From an uncultured Verrucomicrobia subdivision 3 bacterium (lineage in GTDB: Bacteria > Verrucomicrobiota > Verrucomicrobiia > Limisphaerales > UBA11358): 39,882 bases of DNA. Below the pieces are notes generated by a model. The model ran no database searches. It was not told the DNA's origin and was given only the letters and a program-made list of their open reading frames with translations. Shown piece by piece: positions 8,945 to 35,895 of the stretch (position 1 is the first letter of the stretch; each line of letters opens with the position of its first letter). The DNA is taken from positions 1 through 39,882 of the forward strand of contig CAIPKV010000086.1 in NCBI GenBank assembly GCA_903865745.1, in the 5' to 3' direction. A program made the translations under genes and the position numbers.

Positions 8945-10086
8945 CGGTCGGACAGGATACTTTTAGCGGCGGCGCTGGCGAGTTTTTTGTGGGCGGCGGT
9001 GAAGGCCAGCCGCTGCATCTGCGCTGGAGTTTTCCAAGTGCCGCCAGCTTGCTTTGGGGTGGTGGGCAATGCAACTGCGAATGCCGTCAGCGTAATGCGA
9101 TAGCGCGTAATCGAATGCTTCACGGTGACCAGCGGCTGAAGTTTTAGCGGCGCAAAGCCTAGCAGTTCGATGAAAATCTCCTGCGCATCTGGTTTCTTAC
9201 CGGACACCTCCACGTTCGGAAACTCCCACAACTGCGCGTTCACCACGCCGGCCGGCCGTTGCCGTACTAAAAACTTTCCGTCGCGCTCAATGACAAACGC
9301 CATGAACTGCCGCGCCGTAGCCGCTTCACGTTTGCCGAGATTCGGCAGCTCTTCCGTGCGTCCGGTCTTGAACGCCACGCACAGTTTCTGCACCGGACAA
9401 AGTTCGCACTGCGGATTACGCGGCGTGCAGACTAGCGCGCCCAGTTCCATCAACGACTGGTTGAGGTGTGAGCAGCATGGTTGTGAATTATGAGTTTTGA
9501 GTTTTGAATTCTGAACCAGCTCCCCTGCCAGTTCCCACAGCCGCGCGTTCGTGGCCTTCGCCTTGGGATTCTCCGCGATGCCAAACAGACGCGTCAGCAC
9601 GCGGATGACATTGCCATCGAGAATTGGAACCGCCTGATTGAACGCGATGCTGCCAATCGCACCCGCCGTATAGCGCCCAATTCCCGGCAGCGCCAGTATG
9701 TCGTCATACTTTTCTGGAAATTTCCCGCCATGCTGCGCCACGATAAGTTGCGCGGCCTTTTGCAGATTTCGAACGCGCGTGTAATAGCCCAGCCCCTCCC
9801 ACAGTTTGTGAATCTTGGCCGAAGGCGCATTGGCTGCCGCTTGAATCGTCGGCAGCTCGCGCAGCCAGCGCTCCCAAAAGGGAATCACCGTCTTCACCTG
9901 CGTCTGTTGCAGCATGATTTCCGAGACCCAGATCGCGTAAGGATCGCGCGTGAGCCGCCACGGCAGGTCGCGCGCATGCGTGCTGAACCAGTCGAGCAGT
10001 CGCGGAACCAGTTGCGGCGGTTTTGGGTTTTGAGTTTTGGGTTTTGAGTTCACGCTAGTGGCGGCCAATACTTCGCCCACCCCCAT
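8941..10086 (-). CDS. mutY: A/G-specific adenine DNA glycosylase
   Basis: The 381-residue protein is MutY, which removes adenine paired with 8-oxoguanine. It shows the HhH-GPD domain (LPWRLTRDPYAIWVSEIMLQ, then LPGIGRYTAGAI), the catalytic Asp in VPILDGNVIRVL, the [4Fe-4S] ligands C-x6-C-x2-C-x5-C in CTPRNPQCELCPVQKLC, and a C-terminal Nudix-like 8-oxoG recognition domain. Two oddities come from short repeats. Residues about 12-25 before the catalytic domain are encoded by TTTTGGGTTTTGAG tandem copies. A short extra segment (QNSKLKTHNSQPCC) before the cluster comes from a similar repeat at 9485-9517. The ATG at 10086 also lies in repeat DNA, so a GTG at 10053 is an alternative start. It overlaps the desulfurase gene by 4 bases. 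Confidence 0.92.
   Translation of the reverse strand: MGVGEVLAATSVNSKPKTQNPKPPQLVPRLLDWFSTHARDLPWRLTRDPYAIWVSEIMLQQTQVKTVIPFWERWLRELPTIQAAANAPSAKIHKLWEGLGYYTRVRNLQKAAQLIVAQHGGKFPEKYDDILALPGIGRYTAGAIGSIAFNQAVPILDGNVIRVLTRLFGIAENPKAKATNARLWELAGELVQNSKLKTHNSQPCCSHLNQSLMELGALVCTPRNPQCELCPVQKLCVAFKTGRTEELPNLGKREAATARQFMAFVIERDGKFLVRQRPAGVVNAQLWEFPNVEVSGKKPDAQEIFIELLGFAPLKLQPLVTVKHSITRYRITLTAFAVALPTTPKQAGGTWKTPAQMQRLAFTAAHKKLASAAAKSILSDR
9485..9517. repeat. AGTTTTGAG short repeat inside mutY
   Basis: The plus strand reads GAATTATGAGTTTTGAGTTT and continues to about 9517. It is the same AGTTTTGAG/GGTTTTGAG type as at 10019-10050 and 2539-2560. It is translated within mutY as an extra peptide just before the iron-sulfur cluster region. 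Confidence 0.6.
10019..10050. repeat. Tandem 14-mer repeat at the mutY 5' end
   Basis: Two perfect tandem copies of TTTTGGGTTTTGAG (10021-10034 and 10035-10048) lie at the start of mutY and encode a low-complexity NSKPKTQNPKPPQ peptide. Adjacent DNA at 10081-10113 ends in CGGGGTGAGGG, which resembles one arm of the CCCTCACCC inverted-repeat family seen in pabB. Confidence 0.65.
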
Positions 10087-11315: not shown

Positions 11316-11588
11316 ACAGGGGCGTAAACAACGAAATTAGCAGCTGCTAAAATGAAACCCGCAACTGCTAAAACGAAAGTCGCTGCTGCGGAAATGAAAT
11401 TAGCAGCAGCGGATTTGGTAGTCGCAGCTGCTAACACGACATTAGCAGCCGCTAAACTGACAGTCGCAACTGCTGATCTCATAGTCGCCGCTGCTAAAAT
11501 GCCGGTCGCAGCTGCTAGAATGACTTTAGCAGTTGCGGATTTGGTGGACGCAGCGGCGGAAATGAGCCTCGCCGTGGTTATTACCAAA
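11316..11588. repeat. Array A: 13 tandem units of 21 bp
   Basis: From 11337 the DNA divides cleanly into 21-base units beginning TTAGCAGC or GTCGCAGC, such as GTCGCAGCTGCTAACACGAC plus one base at 11421-11441. About twelve units run to 11588, and a weaker one sits at 11316-11336. Most contain GCAGCTGC-like palindromic cores followed by an A/T-rich step (AAAATG). Because 21 is divisible by three, frames stay open and encode Ala-rich heptads on both strands, but neither looks like a real protein. The array lies between rnhC and the small gene at 11665, and ends 76 bases before that start. Confidence 0.85.
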
Positions 11589-11664
11589 ATTTCACGGGAT
11601 AAATTGATACATCCCCCAGCGCTTTTGGTTGTCCGTCGGGTGGGAATGCTTCACAGTGGCGCGC

Positions 11665-14268: not shown

Positions 14269-14562
14269 TAGCCGACAAAAAGCCCCTCCTTCTCGCTTCT
14301 GAGTCGCGCCGGCTGACTTCCGAGTCACGGATGGCCGACAAAGAACCACTCCATCTGGTTTCGGAGTGACGTCGGCTGGGTTCGGAGTCGCAGATGGCCG
14401 ACTAAAAGCCACTCCTTCTCACTTCCGAGTCACGTCGGGCGGGTTCGGAAGCGCGCCGCGCGGGTTCGGGGCCACGCCGGATGGTTTCGGAGGAGCGCCG
14501 TGACCAGTTCGAGCGGCGCCGGCTTCATGCCGAAGCCGTCCGGATAGTTTCGAAGGGGGTTT
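14269..14562. repeat. Array B: 14 units of 21 bp with 63-bp superunits
   Basis: The DNA splits into 21-base units from 14269. Units 1, 4 and 7 (14269, 14332, 14395) are alike: TAGCCGACAAAAAGCCCCTC, TGGCCGACAAAGAACCACTC, TGGCCGACTAAAAGCCACTC. Units 2, 5 and 8 are alike, as are 3, 6 and 9, giving three 63-base superunits. Later units (14437-14562) are looser and built round GGTTCGGA. The array lies upstream of the ArsR-like gene and downstream of the M48 peptidase gene, and is followed by an inverted-repeat element. No protein-like reading is credible. Confidence 0.88.
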
Positions 14563-14602
14563 AGGTGGTTTAAAAATTCTGAAGGCGGAATTTGGAGTGG
14601 TT

Positions 14603-22158: not shown

Positions 22159-22836
22159 TCAAGCAAACGCGACCGGCAGCGTGCCCGGCGGGCCAACCCG
22201 GCGTTCGTAATCGCGGATGATTTCAATCACCTCGTCCACGTCATCGGTCAGCTTGAGGAGGTCGAGGTCGCCGGGGCTGATCAACGAATCTTTTTCGAGA
22301 CGCGACTTCAGCCACGCGAGCAGACCCTTCCAATGCTCGCTGCCGAAAAGAATCATCGGGAATTGCGGGATGCGCTGCGTCTGCACCAGCGTCAGCACCT
22401 CGAACAATTCATCGAGCGTGCCGAAGCCGCCGGGCATGAACACGAAGCCGAGGCTATATTTCACGAAGCAGACTTTGCGCGCGAAGAAGTAGTGAAAATG
22501 AATCGGGACATTGGCGAATTTATTGCCGGATTGCTCGAAGGGCAGTTCGATATTGAGGCCCACCGATTTGCCGCCCGCGCGTTCCGCGCCTTTGTTCGCC
22601 GCTTCCATGATGCCGGGGCCGCCGCCGGTGACGACGGCGAGGTTATGTTTGGCGAGGCCCTTGCCGATATCCTGGGCGGCGCGGTAATACTTATCCGCCG
22701 GCTTGGTGCGCGCGGAGCCGAAGATGGTGACGGCGGGGCCGACCTGCGACATCGTCTGGAACGAATCCACGAACTCGGACATGATGCGGAAAATCCGCCA
22801 GGGATCTTCGCGAATGAAGTTATTGCCATCGCTCAT
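22159..22836 (-). CDS. LOG/TIGR00730 family Rossmann-fold protein
   Basis: The 225-residue protein has the family motifs: VTIFGSARTKPADKYY, VVTGGGPGIMEAANKGA, VGLNIELPFEQ and PGGFGTLDELFEVLTLVQ. Members cleave nucleoside 5'-monophosphates (cytokinin-type LOG enzymes, or PpnN-like nucleotide nucleosidases). The conserved PGGxGTxxE site is intact, so phosphoribohydrolase activity is plausible. The substrate cannot be told from sequence. The ATG at 22836 was preferred to a TTG 36 bases upstream: a GAAGGAG lies about 20 bases before the ATG but inside the longer frame. pabB follows after the CACAGATG element. Confidence 0.9.
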   Translation of the reverse strand: MSDGNNFIREDPWRIFRIMSEFVDSFQTMSQVGPAVTIFGSARTKPADKYYRAAQDIGKGLAKHNLAVVTGGGPGIMEAANKGAERAGGKSVGLNIELPFEQSGNKFANVPIHFHYFFARKVCFVKYSLGFVFMPGGFGTLDELFEVLTLVQTQRIPQFPMILFGSEHWKGLLAWLKSRLEKDSLISPGDLDLLKLTDDVDEVIEIIRDYERRVGPPGTLPVAFA

Positions 22837-22911
22837 ACTGCAAAACTTAGACCCAACTCCTTCAAGAGACAAGCGAGAGTAACGGGCGGGAACCGTATGT
22901 CTGCTTCTTAG

Positions 22912-23262
22912 CTAATCTGGTTTGGCTTCATGGTCATTCTTTTTAGCAAAGTTTGCCATAAAATGACGAACAAGCAGGATAACACCAGCGGTCCCTAAAA
23001 TGCTAACGACGATATATCCAACTCTGTAAAGCTCTAGAAACGTTCTGTCGTCATCTGCGCTAACGAAACCTCGCGAACGATGGATATGCAATGCGGCTGA
23101 AAGTATGATGCCGAGAAAGCCTCCCCAAATAAAAAGAGCAAACGGCAAGAGACTGGTGCGCTTGTATGCTGGAAACGAAACATAAAGTACAGCAAGGTTG
23201 GTGAAGACTGTAACTACAAAATCTGCCTCACGAAGAAATGATGTAATAGTCATAAAAGCCAT
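22912..23262 (-). CDS. Small membrane protein of unknown function
   Basis: From the ATG at 23262 the protein has 116 residues and three predicted membrane helices: FVVTVFTNLAVLYVSF, LLPFALFIWGGFLGIILSA and VGYIVVSILGTAGVILLV. A charged C-terminus (NFAKKNDHEAKPD) follows. No family is recognised. The gene is more AT-rich and less biased in codon use than its neighbours, which may mean recent acquisition or low expression. An ATG three codons further in is an alternative start. It stands alone between the LOG gene and a nest of palindromes. Confidence 0.65.
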   Translation of the reverse strand: MAFMTITSFLREADFVVTVFTNLAVLYVSFPAYKRTSLLPFALFIWGGFLGIILSAALHIHRSRGFVSADDDRTFLELYRVGYIVVSILGTAGVILLVRHFMANFAKKNDHEAKPD

Positions 23263-23368
23263 GTCGCCGACCAATGTTTCAACCGCTCACTTGAGGTTCA
23301 ACCGGTTTCTAGGTTCGCACCTTAAATCCGCTGACGGTCATTGTCGAGCCGCGTTTTGCCGCTCCCCA

Positions 23369-23515
23369 GCGCCGTCGGCGCGGCATCTTTGTAGCATCCA
23401 AAATCAAAAACATTTTTAGCCCCGTCGGGGCGACATCTCCGCCCGATGTCGCTCCTACGGAGCTGGATGGAATTTGGGACGGATACGTTCTACAAAGATG
23501 CCAGCCCTACGGGCT
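23369..23515. repeat. Nested palindromic element with four 13-nt hairpins
   Basis: Four hairpins of 5-3-5 form occur in order: GCGCC-GTC-GGCGC (23369-23381), GCCCC-GTC-GGGGC (23419-23431), GCTCC-TAC-GGAGC (23451-23463) and AGCCC-TAC-GGGCT (23503-23515). The outer pair is joined by GGCATCTTTGTAG (23382-23394), which pairs perfectly with CTACAAAGATGCC (23490-23502). The inner pair is joined by CGACATC (23431-23437) and GATGTCG (23445-23451). The whole is a nested symmetric structure without a gene. It fills most of the 359-base gap between two minus-strand genes. Confidence 0.85.
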
Positions 23516-23556
23516 TTGCTCCCGCCACCGCCCACCGCATCGCCTGTTCTTCCCGC

Positions 23557-23600
23557 AAAAAAATAACCCCGCCAGTGGCTAAACAAAACCACCGGCGGGG
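23557..23600 (-). terminator. Rho-independent terminator after the fibronectin-type gene
   Basis: Arms 23567-23578 (CCCCGCCAGTGG) and 23589-23600 (CCACCGGCGGGG) pair at 11 of 12 positions round a 10-base loop. Read on the minus strand, the stem is followed by TTATTTTTTT (23557-23566). It sits 21 bases after the stop of the gene at 23622-24260. Confidence 0.85.
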
Positions 23601-23621
23601 CGTTCCCCTAACACCAAAAGT

Positions 23622-24260
23622 TTAGGTGCTCATGTGGCTCACCGGGTCGCTCCATTCGCTGAACAGTTTGCCGCCGTTGCCCGCGCGGCCCTGCACGATA
23701 TACACCGTGCCCGGCAGGAGGTCCGGCAACACGATATTGCGCAGCGAGGTGCTGGTGGCACACAACACCCACGTCTTACCATCCACCGAGATGCGGAATT
23801 CCAAGAGCTTGAATTTGCTGGCGCAGGTCGCCGTCACGCCCAGCTTGGTGGACGCGAGGTTGAAAAGGCCCGTGATGACCGGCACAGCGGGCACCGTGGG
23901 CGTATGGGTGGACGGGGTGAGGAGTTTGAAATTGGAAGTCGCGGCGATGGCCGCAGTGATGCCGAGGAGTTCTTCAATGTAGAGCGCGAGGGCGCGGAGT
24001 TTGAGAACGAGGTCTTTGTGCGCGGCAGTTTTGGCCTCAACCGCTGCGTGGCCGCCGTTTTTGACGGTGCCGCTGGTCTTGGTGAACAGCAGTAGCGCGG
24101 CCTGAAAGATGGGCATGCTGACGGGTGGCGTGGCGAAGGCGAGGTTGCCATTCATGCCGTCATAAACGCCGCCGGCGAAATCCGAGAGCGGGCCAGTGGC
24201 CAATCTGGCGAACGCGCGGGAGATTTGAACGACTTCGGCGGGGAGTGGTGTGTTTTCCAT
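23622..24260 (-). CDS. Hypothetical protein with C-terminal fibronectin type III-like domain
   Basis: From the ATG at 24260 the protein has 212 residues and no signal peptide. The N-terminal half is helical (SRAFARLATGPLSDFAGG; then AAVEAKTAAHKDLVLKLRAL, ALYIEELLG). The C-terminal part (about 115-212) reads as a fibronectin-like sandwich: FKLLEFRISVDGKTWVLCAT, VLPDLLPGTVYIVQGRAGNG and a final FSEWSDP. Similar helix-plus-FN3 proteins of this size occur in Verrucomicrobiota and Bacteroidota without a known role. Earlier in-frame ATGs at 24299 and 24335 exist, but none has a clear ribosome site. A strong terminator follows. An AT-rich stretch and array C lie upstream. Confidence 0.72.
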   Translation of the reverse strand: MENTPLPAEVVQISRAFARLATGPLSDFAGGVYDGMNGNLAFATPPVSMPIFQAALLLFTKTSGTVKNGGHAAVEAKTAAHKDLVLKLRALALYIEELLGITAAIAATSNFKLLTPSTHTPTVPAVPVITGLFNLASTKLGVTATCASKFKLLEFRISVDGKTWVLCATSTSLRNIVLPDLLPGTVYIVQGRAGNGGKLFSEWSDPVSHMST

Positions 24261-24457
24261 GATATTATTGGTATGAATCGATTTACCTGCTGATTGCATC
24301 TCGACAATGCGCCTATTCCGGAAAATATACAACAATTATTATGACTTATTTTTTGTCGCTGTTAATTTAATACTGTTTATTTTACATAAGACTGTCAGCT
24401 AGCAGGTTAGGCCGAATGGCTGGCCGCGCAAACGGGGAGGTAAATAAGCTGCGCTAT
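24261..24457 (-). promoter_or_regulatory. AT-rich upstream region of the fibronectin-type gene
   Basis: Positions 24310-24400 are far richer in A and T than the surroundings, with runs such as AATTATTATGACTTATTTTT and TTAATTTAATACTGTTTATT. This is the likely promoter of the minus-strand gene at 24260 and separates it from array C. No unique -35/-10 pair could be chosen. Confidence 0.45.
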
Positions 24458-24730
24458 GCAGCGGCGGGTTTTGGACGGGTGTTGGGGGTGTTTTTCTGGG
24501 TAGCGAAGCGGTTTTTCTGGGCAGCGAACGGGATTATCTGCCGGTCGCAGACGATTATCTGCGCAGCGAAGACCGTTTTCCATGCAGCGAAGACGATTAG
24601 CTGTCTGTCGAAGACTGTTTTCCACGCAGCGAACGCGATTATCTGGGCAGCGAACGCGATTATCTGTGCAGCGAAGGCGGTTATCTCGCTAGATAATCGT
24701 CCGCGCTGCGTGTCGAAGACGGTTAATCAG
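24458..24730. repeat. Array C: 13 units of 21 bp, one inverted
   Basis: Thirteen 21-base units run from 24458. The clearest are GCAGCGAACGCGATTATCTG plus G at 24626-24646 and the next copy at 24647-24667. Consensus is GCAGCGAA-GACG-ATTATCTGG. The unit at 24689-24709 (CTAGATAATCGTCCGCGCTG plus C) is the reverse complement of the consensus with about 18 of 21 matches, yet starts exactly on the 21-base grid. The array lies between nrdJ (ends 24825) and the gene starting at 24260. Confidence 0.9.
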
Positions 24731-24824
24731 TGGTGAAACCGGCTTGGCAAGGCGTTGCCCCAAAGAAAACCGGCCGGAAAATCGGTGGATTCTCCGGCCG
24801 GGGCGATTGGTTCTTTTGATTCGT

Positions 24825-27800
24825 TTACGAGCAGCCGAGGCTTTCGCCGCAGTTGAGGCACTTGTAGCACGCGCCGTTGCGCACGGTGATCTGCCCGCAG
24901 TTCGGACAGCTCGGCGCGTCGGACTGGTTGGTGATCATCTGTGTGAGGGTCGCGGCGCGGCGGGCATGCTTGTGTCCGCTGTGCGGCTTTAATTCCAGGA
25001 TGTCGGTATCTTCGGTCAACGCGAGGTCGGCGACGGGGCGGTTAACCTTTTTTTTTATCTCTTCGGCCAGCCCGGGCATGACCAGCTCAGGCTGGTTGCG
25101 CGCGGCGGTGATGTTTTCGCGATAGCCGGGGATGAATTGGAACGCCATCCAGCGGAACACGTAGTCGGTGATGGAGGAGGCGTTGCGGATGTCCGGGTTC
25201 TTGGTGAAGCCGCTCGGCTCGAAGCGCTGGTGGGCGAACTTCTTGACGAGGGCTTCGAGCGGCACGCCGTACTGGAGCGCCATGCTGGTCAGGGTGCCAA
25301 TGCTATCCATCAAACCGCCGATGGTGGAACCTTCCTTGGCCATGGTGATGAAGAGTTCGCCGGGCTGGCCATCGTCGAAGAGGCCCACGGTGAGGTAGCC
25401 TTCGTGATCGGCGATGTTGAACTTGTGCGTGACGGCGCTGCGGGTCTCATTGAGGCGGCGGCGGAGCGGCTTGCCGGAGTGTTCTTCCAGGCGAGCCACT
25501 TCGGCTTCGAGCTGCTGGATGCGGGCTTCGAGCGGGGCGGCATCAACGGTGGCAGCGGCGGTTTTGTCGCCGGCTTCGTTGGTTTTCTTGGTATTCAACG
25601 GCTGCGAGCGCTTGGAACCGTCGCGATAGATGGCAACGCACTTTAAGCCCATCTTCCACGCTTGAACGTAGGTGTCGCGAATCTCGGCGACGGTGCATTC
25701 CCGGGGCATGTTGACGGTCTTGGAAATGGCGCCGCTGATGAAGGGCTGGGCGGCGCCCATCATCTTGAGATGCGCCATGTAGCCGATGCTGCGCTGGCCT
25801 TGATGCGGCTTGAACGCGCAATCGAATACGGGCAGATGTTCGGGCTGAAGGCCGCTGGCCACGGTCGCGCCGTTTTCCTGGACGTCTTCGATGGTGTCGT
25901 ATTTCTCGATGTGCGCGATGATCTTGGTGACGGTGGCGGCATCGTAGCCGAGGCGCTTGAGGGCGTCGGGTACGCCGCGATTGACGATCTTCAACATGCC
26001 GCCGCCGGCGAGGAGTTTGTATTTGACGAGGGCGATGTCGGGTTCGACGCCGGTGGTGTCGCAATCCATGAGGAACGCGATGGTGCCGGTGGGGGCGAGC
26101 ACGGTGACTTGGGCGTTGCGATAGCCGTGTTGCTTGCCCTTCGCGAGGGCGCTGTCCCACGTCTTGCGCGCTTCGGTCTTGAGATAATTGAATTCGGCGC
26201 TCGGCTGGATTTGTTCGACGGCTTCGCGGTGGAGTTTGATGACGCCGAGCATGGATTCGACGTTGTCCTTGGCGACGGTCTTCTCGACCCCGGCACAGCG
26301 CGCGTCGCGATAGCCGGCGAAGGCGCCGATATTCGCGGCGATGTCAGCGGATTGCTCGTAGGCGTGACCGGTCATGATGGCGGTGATGGCGCCGGCCAGC
26401 GCGCGACCTTCGTCGGAATCGTACGGCAGGCCGTAGCTCATGCAGAGCGAACCGAGGTTCGCGAAGCCGAGGCCGAGCGTGCGGAAGATGTGGGAGTTCT
26501 CGGCGATGTCCTTGGTGGGATAGCTCGCGTTGTCGACGAGGATTTCCTGCGCGGTAATGTAGATGCGCACGGCGGCTTTGAAGCGTTCGATATCGAACTT
26601 GTCGTCGGCGCGTTTGAACTTCATCAAGTTGAGCGACGCGAGGTTGCACGCGGTGTTATTGATGAAAACGTATTCGCTGCACGGATTGGTGGAGTGAATC
26701 GGCTCGGTGCCTTTGCACGTATGCCATTTCTGGATGGCGCCATCGTATTGGATGCCGGGGTCGCCGCAGATGTGCGTGCCTTCCGCGATTTTGTCGAGCA
26801 GTTTGCTGGCGTCTTTCTTCTGCAGCGGCGTGCCGTCGCGGATGGCGCGCGTCCACCATTCCTTGCCACCAAGGGCGGCTTCAAAGAACTCGTCGCTGGC
26901 GCGGACGGAAAGGTTTTCGTTCTGATACATCACGCTGCCGTAGGCGTCGCCATTGTAGCTGCCGTCGTAGCCTTGCTCGATGAGCGCCCACGCCTTCTTT
27001 TCTTCTTTCTGCTTGGCGTCGATGAACTCTTCGATGTCGCCGTGCCAGTCGCGCAGGGTGTTCATTTTCGCGGCGCGACGGGTCTTGCCGCCGGATTTCA
27101 CGACGTTCGCGACTTGGTCATAGACTTTCAGGAAACTCATCGGACCGCTCGGACGGCCGCCACCGCTGAGCTTCTCGCGGCTGGAACGGATGGGCGTCAA
27201 ATCGGTGCCGGTGCCGGAACCATACTTGAAGAGCATCGCTTCGCTGTAGGCGAGGTGCATGATGGACTCCATGTCGTCCTTGACGCTCTGAATGAAGCAG
27301 GCGCTGCCCTGGGGATATTCGTATTGGGTCTTGGCGCGTTCGGCTTCCTTGGTCTTGCGATTGAAGAACCAGTTGCCTTTGCTGGAATTTTTGCCGACGC
27401 CGTATTCGTGATACAAGCCGACGTTGAACCAGACGGGCGAATTGAAGGCGCCATATTGGTTGAGGCAGAGCCAGGTCAATTCGTCGTAGAAGATTTCGCC
27501 GTCCGCTTTGCTAAAATAACCGTCCGCGATACCCCAGTCCGCGATGGTGCGCGTGATGCGGTGGATGAGTTGGCGCACGGAGGTTTCGCGCTCGGAGGTG
27601 TTCTGCTCGCCGTAAAAGTACTTCGAGACGACGACCTTCGTGGCGAGGACCGACCATGACTTCGGCACCTCGACGTTTTCCTGCTTAAAAATGACTTTGC
27701 CACCATCATCGGTGATTTCAGCGGTGCGCTGATCCCATTCGATCTGGTCAAAGGGTTTGACCTTGGCGTCGCTGAAAACGCGCTCAATGCGCAGCGACTT

Positions 27801-27911
27801 TTTGGCTTCGGATTTGGTTGGTTTCATGGAACGAGTCGCAGAAACTTTGTTGGTACGGCGGGCGTCGGCTTTTGGGGTAGGCGACGAGACTTCCTCACGG
27901 GCATCAATCAT
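24825..27911 (-). CDS. nrdJ: Vitamin B12-dependent ribonucleoside-diphosphate reductase
   Basis: The 1028-residue enzyme is a class II (adenosylcobalamin) ribonucleotide reductase, which makes deoxyribonucleotides with or without oxygen. It has WFNVGLYHEYGVG, SACFIQSVKDDMESIM, GSGTGTDLTPIRSSREKLSG and the active-site NPCSEYVFINNTACNLASLN. The C-terminal part carries TGTIAFLMDCDTTGVEPD, and the protein ends in a zinc-ribbon-like CPNCG...CYKCLNCGESLGCS with redox cysteines. Length fits the long bacterial class II group. A ribosome site GGAG lies 7-8 bases before the ATG at 27911. No nrdA, nrdB or nrdD is in the window. The upstream 290 bases hold palindromes but no recognisable cobalamin riboswitch. 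Confidence 0.95.
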   Translation of the reverse strand: MIDAREEVSSPTPKADARRTNKVSATRSMKPTKSEAKKSLRIERVFSDAKVKPFDQIEWDQRTAEITDDGGKVIFKQENVEVPKSWSVLATKVVVSKYFYGEQNTSERETSVRQLIHRITRTIADWGIADGYFSKADGEIFYDELTWLCLNQYGAFNSPVWFNVGLYHEYGVGKNSSKGNWFFNRKTKEAERAKTQYEYPQGSACFIQSVKDDMESIMHLAYSEAMLFKYGSGTGTDLTPIRSSREKLSGGGRPSGPMSFLKVYDQVANVVKSGGKTRRAAKMNTLRDWHGDIEEFIDAKQKEEKKAWALIEQGYDGSYNGDAYGSVMYQNENLSVRASDEFFEAALGGKEWWTRAIRDGTPLQKKDASKLLDKIAEGTHICGDPGIQYDGAIQKWHTCKGTEPIHSTNPCSEYVFINNTACNLASLNLMKFKRADDKFDIERFKAAVRIYITAQEILVDNASYPTKDIAENSHIFRTLGLGFANLGSLCMSYGLPYDSDEGRALAGAITAIMTGHAYEQSADIAANIGAFAGYRDARCAGVEKTVAKDNVESMLGVIKLHREAVEQIQPSAEFNYLKTEARKTWDSALAKGKQHGYRNAQVTVLAPTGTIAFLMDCDTTGVEPDIALVKYKLLAGGGMLKIVNRGVPDALKRLGYDAATVTKIIAHIEKYDTIEDVQENGATVASGLQPEHLPVFDCAFKPHQGQRSIGYMAHLKMMGAAQPFISGAISKTVNMPRECTVAEIRDTYVQAWKMGLKCVAIYRDGSKRSQPLNTKKTNEAGDKTAAATVDAAPLEARIQQLEAEVARLEEHSGKPLRRRLNETRSAVTHKFNIADHEGYLTVGLFDDGQPGELFITMAKEGSTIGGLMDSIGTLTSMALQYGVPLEALVKKFAHQRFEPSGFTKNPDIRNASSITDYVFRWMAFQFIPGYRENITAARNQPELVMPGLAEEIKKKVNRPVADLALTEDTDILELKPHSGHKHARRAATLTQMITNQSDAPSCPNCGQITVRNGACYKCLNCGESLGCS

Positions 27912-35438: not shown

Positions 35439-35517
35439 GTACCTAGCGTTAGTTTATATTAGCCGCCACCGCAAGCTGGCATTTTCCGACTGCTAAAACT
35501 TCAGCCTCCTCCGATAA

Positions 35518-35895
35518 TGCAAGCCCCGTGGCTCCTTAAACATGAGGTGCAACGGAGGAAGCAAGCCTGAAGGCTCCTTAAAACCAGCCTGCAACGGGGA
35601 ATGCAAGCCTCAATGCTCCTTGAAACTGGGCAGCAACCGATGTTACAAGCCCCAGCACTACTTAAACAGGGACTGCAACGGAGGATGCAAGCCTCCAAGC
35701 ACCTTGAAACCGGACTGCAACCGGGGTTACAAGCCTCAAAGCTCCTTAAAATAGGACCGCGACGGGCAATGCAAGCCTCACGGCTCCTTAAAACAGGGCA
35801 GCAACGGATGTTACAAGCCCCATGACTCCTTAAAATAGCGGTGAATCGGCGGTTCCCCACCTAAAATCTCCTTAAATAGGGGTGTTTTCGGAGAA
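35518..35895. repeat. Array D: nine 42-bp units alternating in an 84-bp pattern
   Basis: Nine 42-base units (2 x 21) run from 35518, each with the form TGCAAGCCTC...GCTCCTTAAAA...TGCAACGG. For example, 35686 starts TGCAAGCCTCCAAGCACCTT. From the third unit on, starts alternate TGC and TAC (35602, 35644, 35686, 35728, 35770, 35812), giving an 84-base superperiod. The last unit (35854) is degenerate. Frames stay open on both strands as Cys-rich 14-residue repeats, but no start or ribosome site supports a gene. The array lies between the ArsR-like gene (start 35438) and the end of the fibronectin protein (36011). Confidence 0.88.

What the first reader, a model, noticed from the sequence alone, without database searches (positions are those of the whole stretch)
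24689..24709. An inverted unit that keeps the 21-bp grid
The unit at 24689-24709 is the reverse complement of the array C consensus (about 18 of 21 matches), flanked on both sides by direct units and starting exactly on the grid. Simple replication slippage makes direct copies only. An in-register inversion suggests recombination between units, strand-switching during copying, or a palindromic binding site that tolerates either direction.
Basis: seen in the sequence. Interest (0 to 1): 0.68.

Follow-up and report, generated by a model that had tools for sequence, protein, structure and literature searches.

The report
Flipped copy in 21-bp repeat array
One copy in a row of 21-letter DNA repeats in a Verrucomicrobia bacterium really is flipped; such rows sit just upstream of two families of small genes, and their letters change while the 21-letter spacing stays.

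Summary
In detail: the reverse complement of 24689-24709 matches 18 of 21 consensus bases of the ten direct units (0 of 300,000 random units do). "On the grid" is weak evidence alone, because 21 is odd and one of 21 phases always fits. The telling form, that the flip axis is the array's dyad axis, holds for 23 of 24 units that score better inverted by 5 bits or more.

Array C belongs to a class: 23 non-coding period-21 arrays in 369 kb of held-out stretches, partly dyad-symmetric, 5 indels against 2,698 mismatches in 43 arrays, inverted copies up to 27 bp in excess of controls.

Array C lies upstream of a small helical-FN3 gene. In this genome 14 of 15 copies of that gene and 7 of 7 of a second family have such an array upstream, against 52 of 549 genes generally. 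Outside the genus it is 12 of 15, none downstream. Between paralogues with 86-91% identical flanks, arrays are unrelated and differ in length by exactly 21 bp.

Likely: strand-switching inside a lattice held at 21 bp by selection.

The parts
24689..24709 (-). inverted 21-bp unit
   Evidence: 18/21 to the reverse complement of the consensus of 10 direct units, 7/21 direct; 0 of 300,000 random units reach 18
24490..24725 (.). array C, degenerate non-coding 21-bp tandem array (11 grid units from 24500: ten direct, one inverted), upstream of gene 23622-24260
   Evidence: periodicity scan, wraparound alignment without indel, TRF
24668..24709 (.). imperfect hairpin formed by the last direct unit before the inverted unit and the inverted unit
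   Evidence: 24660-24715 +: DNA fold -14.5 kcal/mol, z -4.0; RNA fold -25.7 kcal/mol, z -4.1
23622..24260 (-). family-1 gene (212 aa, N-terminal part of unknown type, C-terminal fibronectin-III-like); array C ends about 230 bp upstream of its start
   Evidence: 15 matches in the own genome and matches in 19 of 48 other genomes of the genus; profile of 13 members matches fibronectin structures over its C-terminal part, best E 5e-9; Pfam fn3 for member L273 E 8e-7
24416..24736 (+). 106-aa open frame across the array; judged not a gene
   Evidence: codon log-odds 0.7; no Pfam match of note (best E 0.35); no codon-position signal (p 0.29)
24825..27911 (-). class II ribonucleotide reductase, conserved neighbour
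   Evidence: PF02867 E 8e-126, PF08471 E 1e-18
22159..22872 (-). LOG/lysine-decarboxylase-like gene, conserved neighbour
   Evidence: PF03641 E 5e-31; within 90 bp of the reductase in 10 of 24 related stretches that hold both, 1.95 kb away here
11330..11609 (.). array A, 21-bp period, GCAGCTGC dyad
   Evidence: dyad p 0.003; limits
14281..14600 (.). array B, 21-bp period, with an inverted unit at 14575
35511..35876 (.). array D, alternating 21-bp units (42-bp period)

Best explanation
24689-24709 is a real inverted copy inside an array that is the upstream element of a small helical-FN3 gene (23622-24260). SHOWN: such arrays lie upstream of two dispersed small-gene families, one of them across the order; they share a 21-bp lattice with partial dyad symmetry but not a sequence; between paralogous copies the array content is replaced while the flanks and the lattice stay; inverted copies lie on the lattice. 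INFERRED: array content turns over by copying between units, and a nascent strand primed by a palindromic arm sometimes switches to the other strand and back, leaving an inverted unit that is in register by geometry. INFERRED, less sure: selection holds the spacing because the lattice (two helical turns per unit) is read by a homodimeric or polymerising DNA-binding protein that controls, or moves, the downstream gene and reads either direction.
For: Inversion. Class: 20 arrays in 416 kb, 23 in 369 kb held out. Upstream link: family 1, 14 of 15 own copies with an array within 662 bp upstream and none of 15 with one within 800 bp downstream; 7 of 10 relatives; 8 of 12 in the genus (three of the 12 also) and 12 of 15 outside it, downstream 0 of 29; family 2, 7 of 7; background 52 of 549 genes, binomial p 6e-14 for 14 of 15. 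Turnover: L286/L288 flanks 86% over 412 bp and 91% over 773 bp, arrays of 280 and 301 bp unrelated (best consensus match 9/21, chance 9.9); in C61/C8 84% homology starts at the base after the array. Spacing: 5 indels, 2,698 mismatches. Dyad: 10 of 21 and 11 of 23 arrays at p below 0.05 (Fisher 5e-15 and 5e-14). Inverted exact runs of 10 bp or more: 38 against 18.2 and 38 against 12.2 held out, 70 of 76 on the dyad axis, 6 one base off. Array consensuses of C4 and C52 agree at 18 of 21 in opposite orientation. Template switching between inverted arms inverts the segment between them (PMC8604942, passages).
Against: Only 7 of the 43 arrays are next to the two families; others sampled stand beside assorted genes, with little upstream bias overall (52 genes have an array upstream, 35 downstream). 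Array C's dyad without the flipped unit is not significant (p 0.33), and about half of the arrays show none. Complementary positions do not covary. The yeast spacer inversions in PMC8604942 were seen only with arms over 9 bp; the unit's own arms are 4 bp. No binding protein is identified. Some copies lack an array at the threshold (C70a, L279, L289/L273, L299, L306, L296, L304, L316), and L318 has a period of 22. The shared composition around the dyad does not correlate significantly between the two sets (r 0.35, p 0.30).
Confidence: 0.5

Rival explanations
1. The cassette (array plus small gene) is a selfish or hitch-hiking element and the array a by-product: a mutational habit makes 21-bp duplications and strand switches, and nothing reads the lattice.
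For: Family-1 genes are multicopy. Array C and its gene lie between genes that are within 90 bp of each other in 10 of 24 related stretches. Exact tandem repeats in the genus include many of period 7 and some of 14, a hint of a stepwise mutational habit.
Against: The 21-bp period upstream of family-1 genes recurs in 12 of 15 genomes of other genera, while even paralogous arrays do not share sequence. Almost no indels at 27% mismatch; what neutral drift would give is recalled, not measured.
Confidence: 0.3
2. Targeted hypermutation as in diversity-generating retroelements rewrites the arrays.
For: Content changes without indels between conserved flanks.
Against: No reverse transcriptase (PF00078) in the own genome (assembly 97% complete). 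Transitions and transversions of all kinds occur, not one base class.
Confidence: 0.05
3. Selection for palindromic sites alone, without inverted copying.
For: Dyad profiles without covariation; C-G swaps at the dyad centre fit symmetric reading too.
Against: Exact inverted runs of 27, 21 and 19 bp and excess over column-permuted controls in two samples; 18/21 against 7/21 for the 24689 unit.
Confidence: 0.08
4. The array codes for a heptad-repeat peptide.
For: Open frame 24416-24736 with ATG on the grid.
Against: No codon-position signal in 20 of the 21 arrays tested (the exception L122 lies in a gene, p 0.04); stops in all six frames in four arrays; codon log-odds 0.7.
Confidence: 0.02
5. 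The hairpin of direct plus inverted unit is an RNA terminator or leader structure.
For: 24660-24715 and 24590-24735 fold better than shuffles (RNA z -4.1 and -3.1).
Against: No T-run follows; no covariation across arrays; the array part without the inverted unit (24479-24625) folds as shuffles do (DNA z -0.9); any inverted copy folds.
Confidence: 0.04
6. Assembly artefact.
For: Five arrays reach contig ends.
Against: Array C is inside a contig, its units all differ, and inverted units occur in 16 of 43 arrays.
Confidence: 0.02

Closest known systems
Promoter or intergenic VNTR/minisatellite loci
   Same: degenerate tandem units next to genes, fast-changing
   Different: one 21-bp period kept across genera in arrays of unrelated sequence, almost no indels, dyad-symmetric, in-register inverted copies
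REP/BIME elements (PMC2817692, PMC3733652: abstract starts and passages seen)
   Same: extragenic, palindromic, about 20 bp, clusters with both orientations
   Different: no genome-wide consensus (array C recurs at two contig ends, array A at two places); contiguous units at a constant 21 bp
Template-switch spacer inversion (PMC8604942: abstract and passages seen)
   Same: segment between inverted arms is flipped in place
   Different: there 2-5 bp changes in yeast genes with arms over 9 bp; here whole units in bacterial arrays
Diversity-generating retroelements (PMC10907252: start of abstract and passages seen)
   Same: targeted variation linked to gene families
   Different: no reverse transcriptase found; variation in a non-coding upstream array
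Iteron arrays of plasmid origins (recalled)
   Same: direct repeats about two helical turns long, bound in phase
   Different: many arrays of different sequence in one genome, upstream of small genes

Membership tests
Minisatellite (VNTR) | tandem head-to-tail units | tested here: met
Minisatellite (VNTR) | copy number differs between strains | tested here: inconclusive
   no second strain; paralogous arrays L286/L288 differ by one unit length
REP/BIME | extragenic palindromic repeats | tested here: inconclusive
   38 of 44 arrays overlap gene calls by under 25%; dyad signal in about half
REP/BIME | one consensus at many sites | tested here: not met
REP/BIME | RAYT transposase | tested here: inconclusive
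   two PF01797 genes in the genome; link to arrays not tested
Diversity-generating retroelement | reverse transcriptase | tested here: not met
   no PF00078 match in the own genome, 3 of 14 control genomes positive
CRISPR | repeats separated by unique spacers | tested here: not met
   units contiguous; no Rfam match in the window; cas genes not searched
Coding heptad repeats | codon-position bias and open frame | tested here: not met
   (first 21 arrays only; held-out arrays not tested)
Template-switch spacer inversion | segment flipped in place between inverted arms | tested here: inconclusive
   flips share the dyad axis; no before-and-after pair

The most novel reading that the evidence does not exclude
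An order-wide two-part system in which a small helical-FN3 gene is paired with an upstream DNA lattice whose 21-bp dyad spacing is inherited and read while its letters are freely and rapidly replaced, unit by unit and in either direction, so that each copy of the gene carries its own array identity.
Probability: 0.25. Interest if true: 0.87.

Novelty: categorically new. Interest (0 to 1): 0.8.

Why it matters
Known repeat systems (as recalled) keep a sequence and let spacing or number vary. Here spacing is kept, across genera and between paralogues, while sequence is not, next to two small-gene families of unknown function. If confirmed it separates lattice from sequence as the inherited feature, asks what measures two helical turns, and offers natural records of strand-switch inversion in bacteria. 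'Categorically new' rests on my searches and recall only.

Tried and rejected
Modulo-21 offset test as proposed: circular, because the phase is free; replaced by the dyad-axis test. Coding peptide. Maintained hairpins: no covariation (combined z -2.3 and +0.9 over 21 own arrays, +1.1 and +0.4 over 16 others; a few single arrays, such as L120, L121 and L056, reach p below 0.05). Bending at half period: nothing at lags 10-11. Worn triple heptamer: no similarity at lags 7 or 14. Reverse transcriptase: none. Structure of the window's family-1 protein alone: useless model (mean pLDDT 38). Phage relatives: none at E 0.01. Defence library: 1 of 13 members at E 8e-4 to PDC-S29. Phage-tail profiles match mainly the FN3 part (phrog_6977, best E 1e-8, where the match reaches further). 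NCBIfam: none for 6 members.

Limits: per-array p-values are invalid where the longest run is under 8 bp; only the pooled tests are used. L122 (in a gene) was left out of the pooled inverted-run tests; array D was added by hand. In one search the scored window unit 24681 is out of phase with 24689, so part of the flipped unit stayed in its training set; one search has the clean version. Swap counts are over pairs of units and not independent. Relatives' arrays gave a weaker dyad signal (Fisher 5e-4 over 16, two of them heptamer repeats). The array-upstream background was measured in the own genome only.

That led to and raised interest, novelty and the novel case.

Full report
OBSERVATION. The reverse complement of 24689-24709 matches the consensus of ten direct grid units at 18 of 21, direct reading at 7. 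Single direct units match the flipped unit at 10-16, and each other at 13.6 on average (range 9-20), so it is an ordinary family member turned round. Random units of the same composition never reached 18 in 300,000 draws. It scores 21.9 bits where the best site outside the family in 416 kb scores 15.7.

GRID. 'Exactly on the grid' is true but weak: moving unit borders by r changes the offset by -2r modulo 21, and because 21 is odd one phase always gives zero. The real facts are the 42-bp spacing of the flanking direct units and that the flip axis is the best dyad axis of the other ten units; for array C alone the latter is a 1-in-21 coincidence (dyad p 0.33 without the unit).

CLASS. Named relatives by the reductase gene are mostly Verrucomicrobia subdivision 3 / Limisphaerales MAGs. 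In the own genome (3.63 Mb, 87 contigs) a first sample gave 20 period-21 arrays in 416 kb; it includes the window, four stretches picked because they matched arrays A or C, and stretches of contigs with weak matches. A second sample of 20 further stretches gave 23 in 369 kb, which extrapolates to about 226 per genome. Periods 21, 42 and 63 dominate in both. In 20 other genomes (1,163 kb, some sampled by only 9-20 kb) the scan at threshold 0.50 gave 14, against 22 in the 416 kb of the own genome; a few of the 14 are heptamer or low-complexity repeats. In 80 named loci there were 3 in 1.31 Mb.

NON-CODING, STRICTLY SPACED. 38 of 44 arrays overlap gene calls by under 25% in DNA that is 84% coding (my own simple gene caller). 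In the first 21 arrays only L122, inside a gene, shows codon-position bias, and four have stops in all six frames. A gapped alignment found 5 single-base indels in 43 arrays (11,043 bp), 39 having none, with 2,698 of 10,113 core bases off consensus; the array scan favours gap-free stretches, but the alignment could extend 150 bp past gaps.

DYAD AND INVERTED COPIES. Unit profiles are more self-complementary than permuted ones in 10 of 21 arrays (Fisher 5e-15) and 11 of 23 held out (5e-14). Complementary positions do not covary. Exact inverted runs of 10 bp or more: 38 in the first set (18.2 expected, 0 of 300 permutations as high; 32 on axis, 6 one base off), 38 in the held-out set (12.2 expected, 0 of 200; 38 on axis). 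On-axis placement is partly expected in palindromic arrays; the excess is the evidence for copying. Longest: 27 bp in L116, 21 and 19 bp in L254. Of 461 units, 24 score at least 5 bits better inverted, in 16 of 43 arrays; 23 flip about the axis of the other units. Between similar units 139 of 205 differences at the exact dyad centre are C-G swaps, complementary swaps being 19-38% elsewhere; flipping or symmetric reading would both do this. The centre is GC-rich and positions 3-5 AT-rich across arrays (z 3.4; -3.6, -1.5, -2.5), though the whole profile does not correlate significantly between sets.

THE PARTNER GENE. Array C ends about 230 bp upstream of gene 23622-24260. None of 100 stretches around the reductase gene holds a homologue (E 1e-20), but genome-wide it is multicopy: 15 matches in the own genome, matches in 19 of 48 other genomes of the genus. 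Its C-terminal part is fibronectin-III-like (profile of 13 members; Pfam fn3 at E below 1e-4 in 2 of 6 members scanned); the N-terminal part has no match of note and looks helical only in a poor model. Of the 15 own copies 14 have a period-21 array upstream, the nearest array edge 52-662 bp from the match; C70a has none; none has one within 800 bp downstream. In ten copies from relatives 7 have one; one of the three without has only about 150 bp of contig. From an order-wide search (53 of 293 genomes with a match) I examined the 29 loci returned from other genomes: with enough upstream room, 8 of 12 in the genus (three of the 12 also counted) and 12 of 15 in other genera have one; downstream 0 of 29; among periods 14-31 the best upstream was 21 in 14 of the 15 outside the genus; L318 in the genus has 22 instead. 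Background in the own genome: 52 of 549 genes with an array within 700 bp upstream, 35 downstream; 14 of 15 has binomial p 6e-14.

A SECOND FAMILY. Clustering proteins beside arrays gave a second set (L110, L245, L251). The own genome has 7 matches to its L251 member, and 7 of 7 have an array upstream. The three proteins scanned have no Pfam or PHROG match of note. Still, only 7 of the 43 arrays are next to either family (4 and 3); of the others I scanned six neighbours: PfkB, HlyD, an SMC-like ATPase, DUF748, a sigma-54 regulator, and one without a match.

TURNOVER. Paralogous cassettes show what changes. L286 and L288 (family 2): left flanks 86% over 412 bp, right flanks 91% over 773 bp; between them 280 and 301 bp, a difference of exactly 21, with unrelated units (best cyclic consensus match 9 of 21, chance 9.9; anchored identity 0.33 and 0.36). 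C61 and C8: 84% over 871 bp starting at the base after the array end of C61; arrays unrelated. C4 and C59a: flanking blocks mostly 82-92%, array edge 74%, array middle 50-62%. C4 and C52, whose genes gave no DNA match to each other, have array consensuses that agree at 18 of 21 in opposite orientation. So array content changes far faster than its surroundings, and in either direction, on a kept lattice.

MECHANISM. Template switching between inverted arms inverts the segment between them (PMC8604942, passages). On a shared dyad lattice any strand switch or recombination primed by one arm on another lands in register. In array C all six exact inverted matches of 8 bp or more share one axis modulo 21, the longest 11 bp. 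This explains register and, with spread of unit types, turnover; it does not explain the number 21. I prefer two helical turns and a dimeric or polymerising reader; a 7-nt mutational step is an alternative (exact repeats of period 7, 9, 14 and 21: own 6, 6, 5, 3; relatives 22, 4, 3, 6).

CONTEXT. Array C and its gene lie in the 1.95 kb between the reductase and a LOG-like gene; in related stretches holding both, the gap is 90 bp or less in 10 of 24 (8 of 19 after removing five duplicates), and gaps up to 3.9 kb occur. That the short gap is ancestral is inference.

VERDICT. Inversion: near certain. Lattice class and its upstream link to family 1: strong. Strand-switch origin: more likely than not. 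Lattice reader: plausible, untested.

Noticed in passing
sampled stretches (e.g. L255 6012-6075, L220 8902-8995, window 10020-10050): Exact tandem repeats: period 7 stands out in relatives (22 in 1,163 kb; periods 8 and 9: 4 each), less so in the own genome (6, as many as period 9); 14 and 21 also occur, periods 15-20 and 22-30 at 0 or 1.
   Followed up: partly
L107 12712-12937, L108 10436-10546, L118 1-153, L244 1-128, L247 1-265: Five arrays lie at contig ends, three of them with near-identical units (L107, L108, L244), so the assembly breaks in arrays and true arrays may be longer.
   Followed up: no
22873-24824: The space between reductase and LOG-like genes is long in several relatives too (L025, L027, L029, L064); its content there was not examined.
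   Followed up: partly
L254 281-542: Units look like mosaics of interchangeable half-units of about 10 bp in both orientations.
   Followed up: no
C4 (L264) and C52 (L271) arrays: Two arrays before different family-1 genes share a unit (18 of 21) in opposite orientation, as if whole arrays or unit types move between loci.
   Followed up: partly
L318 (G056): A family-1 gene with an upstream repeat of period 22 instead of 21 (score 0.69).
   Followed up: no
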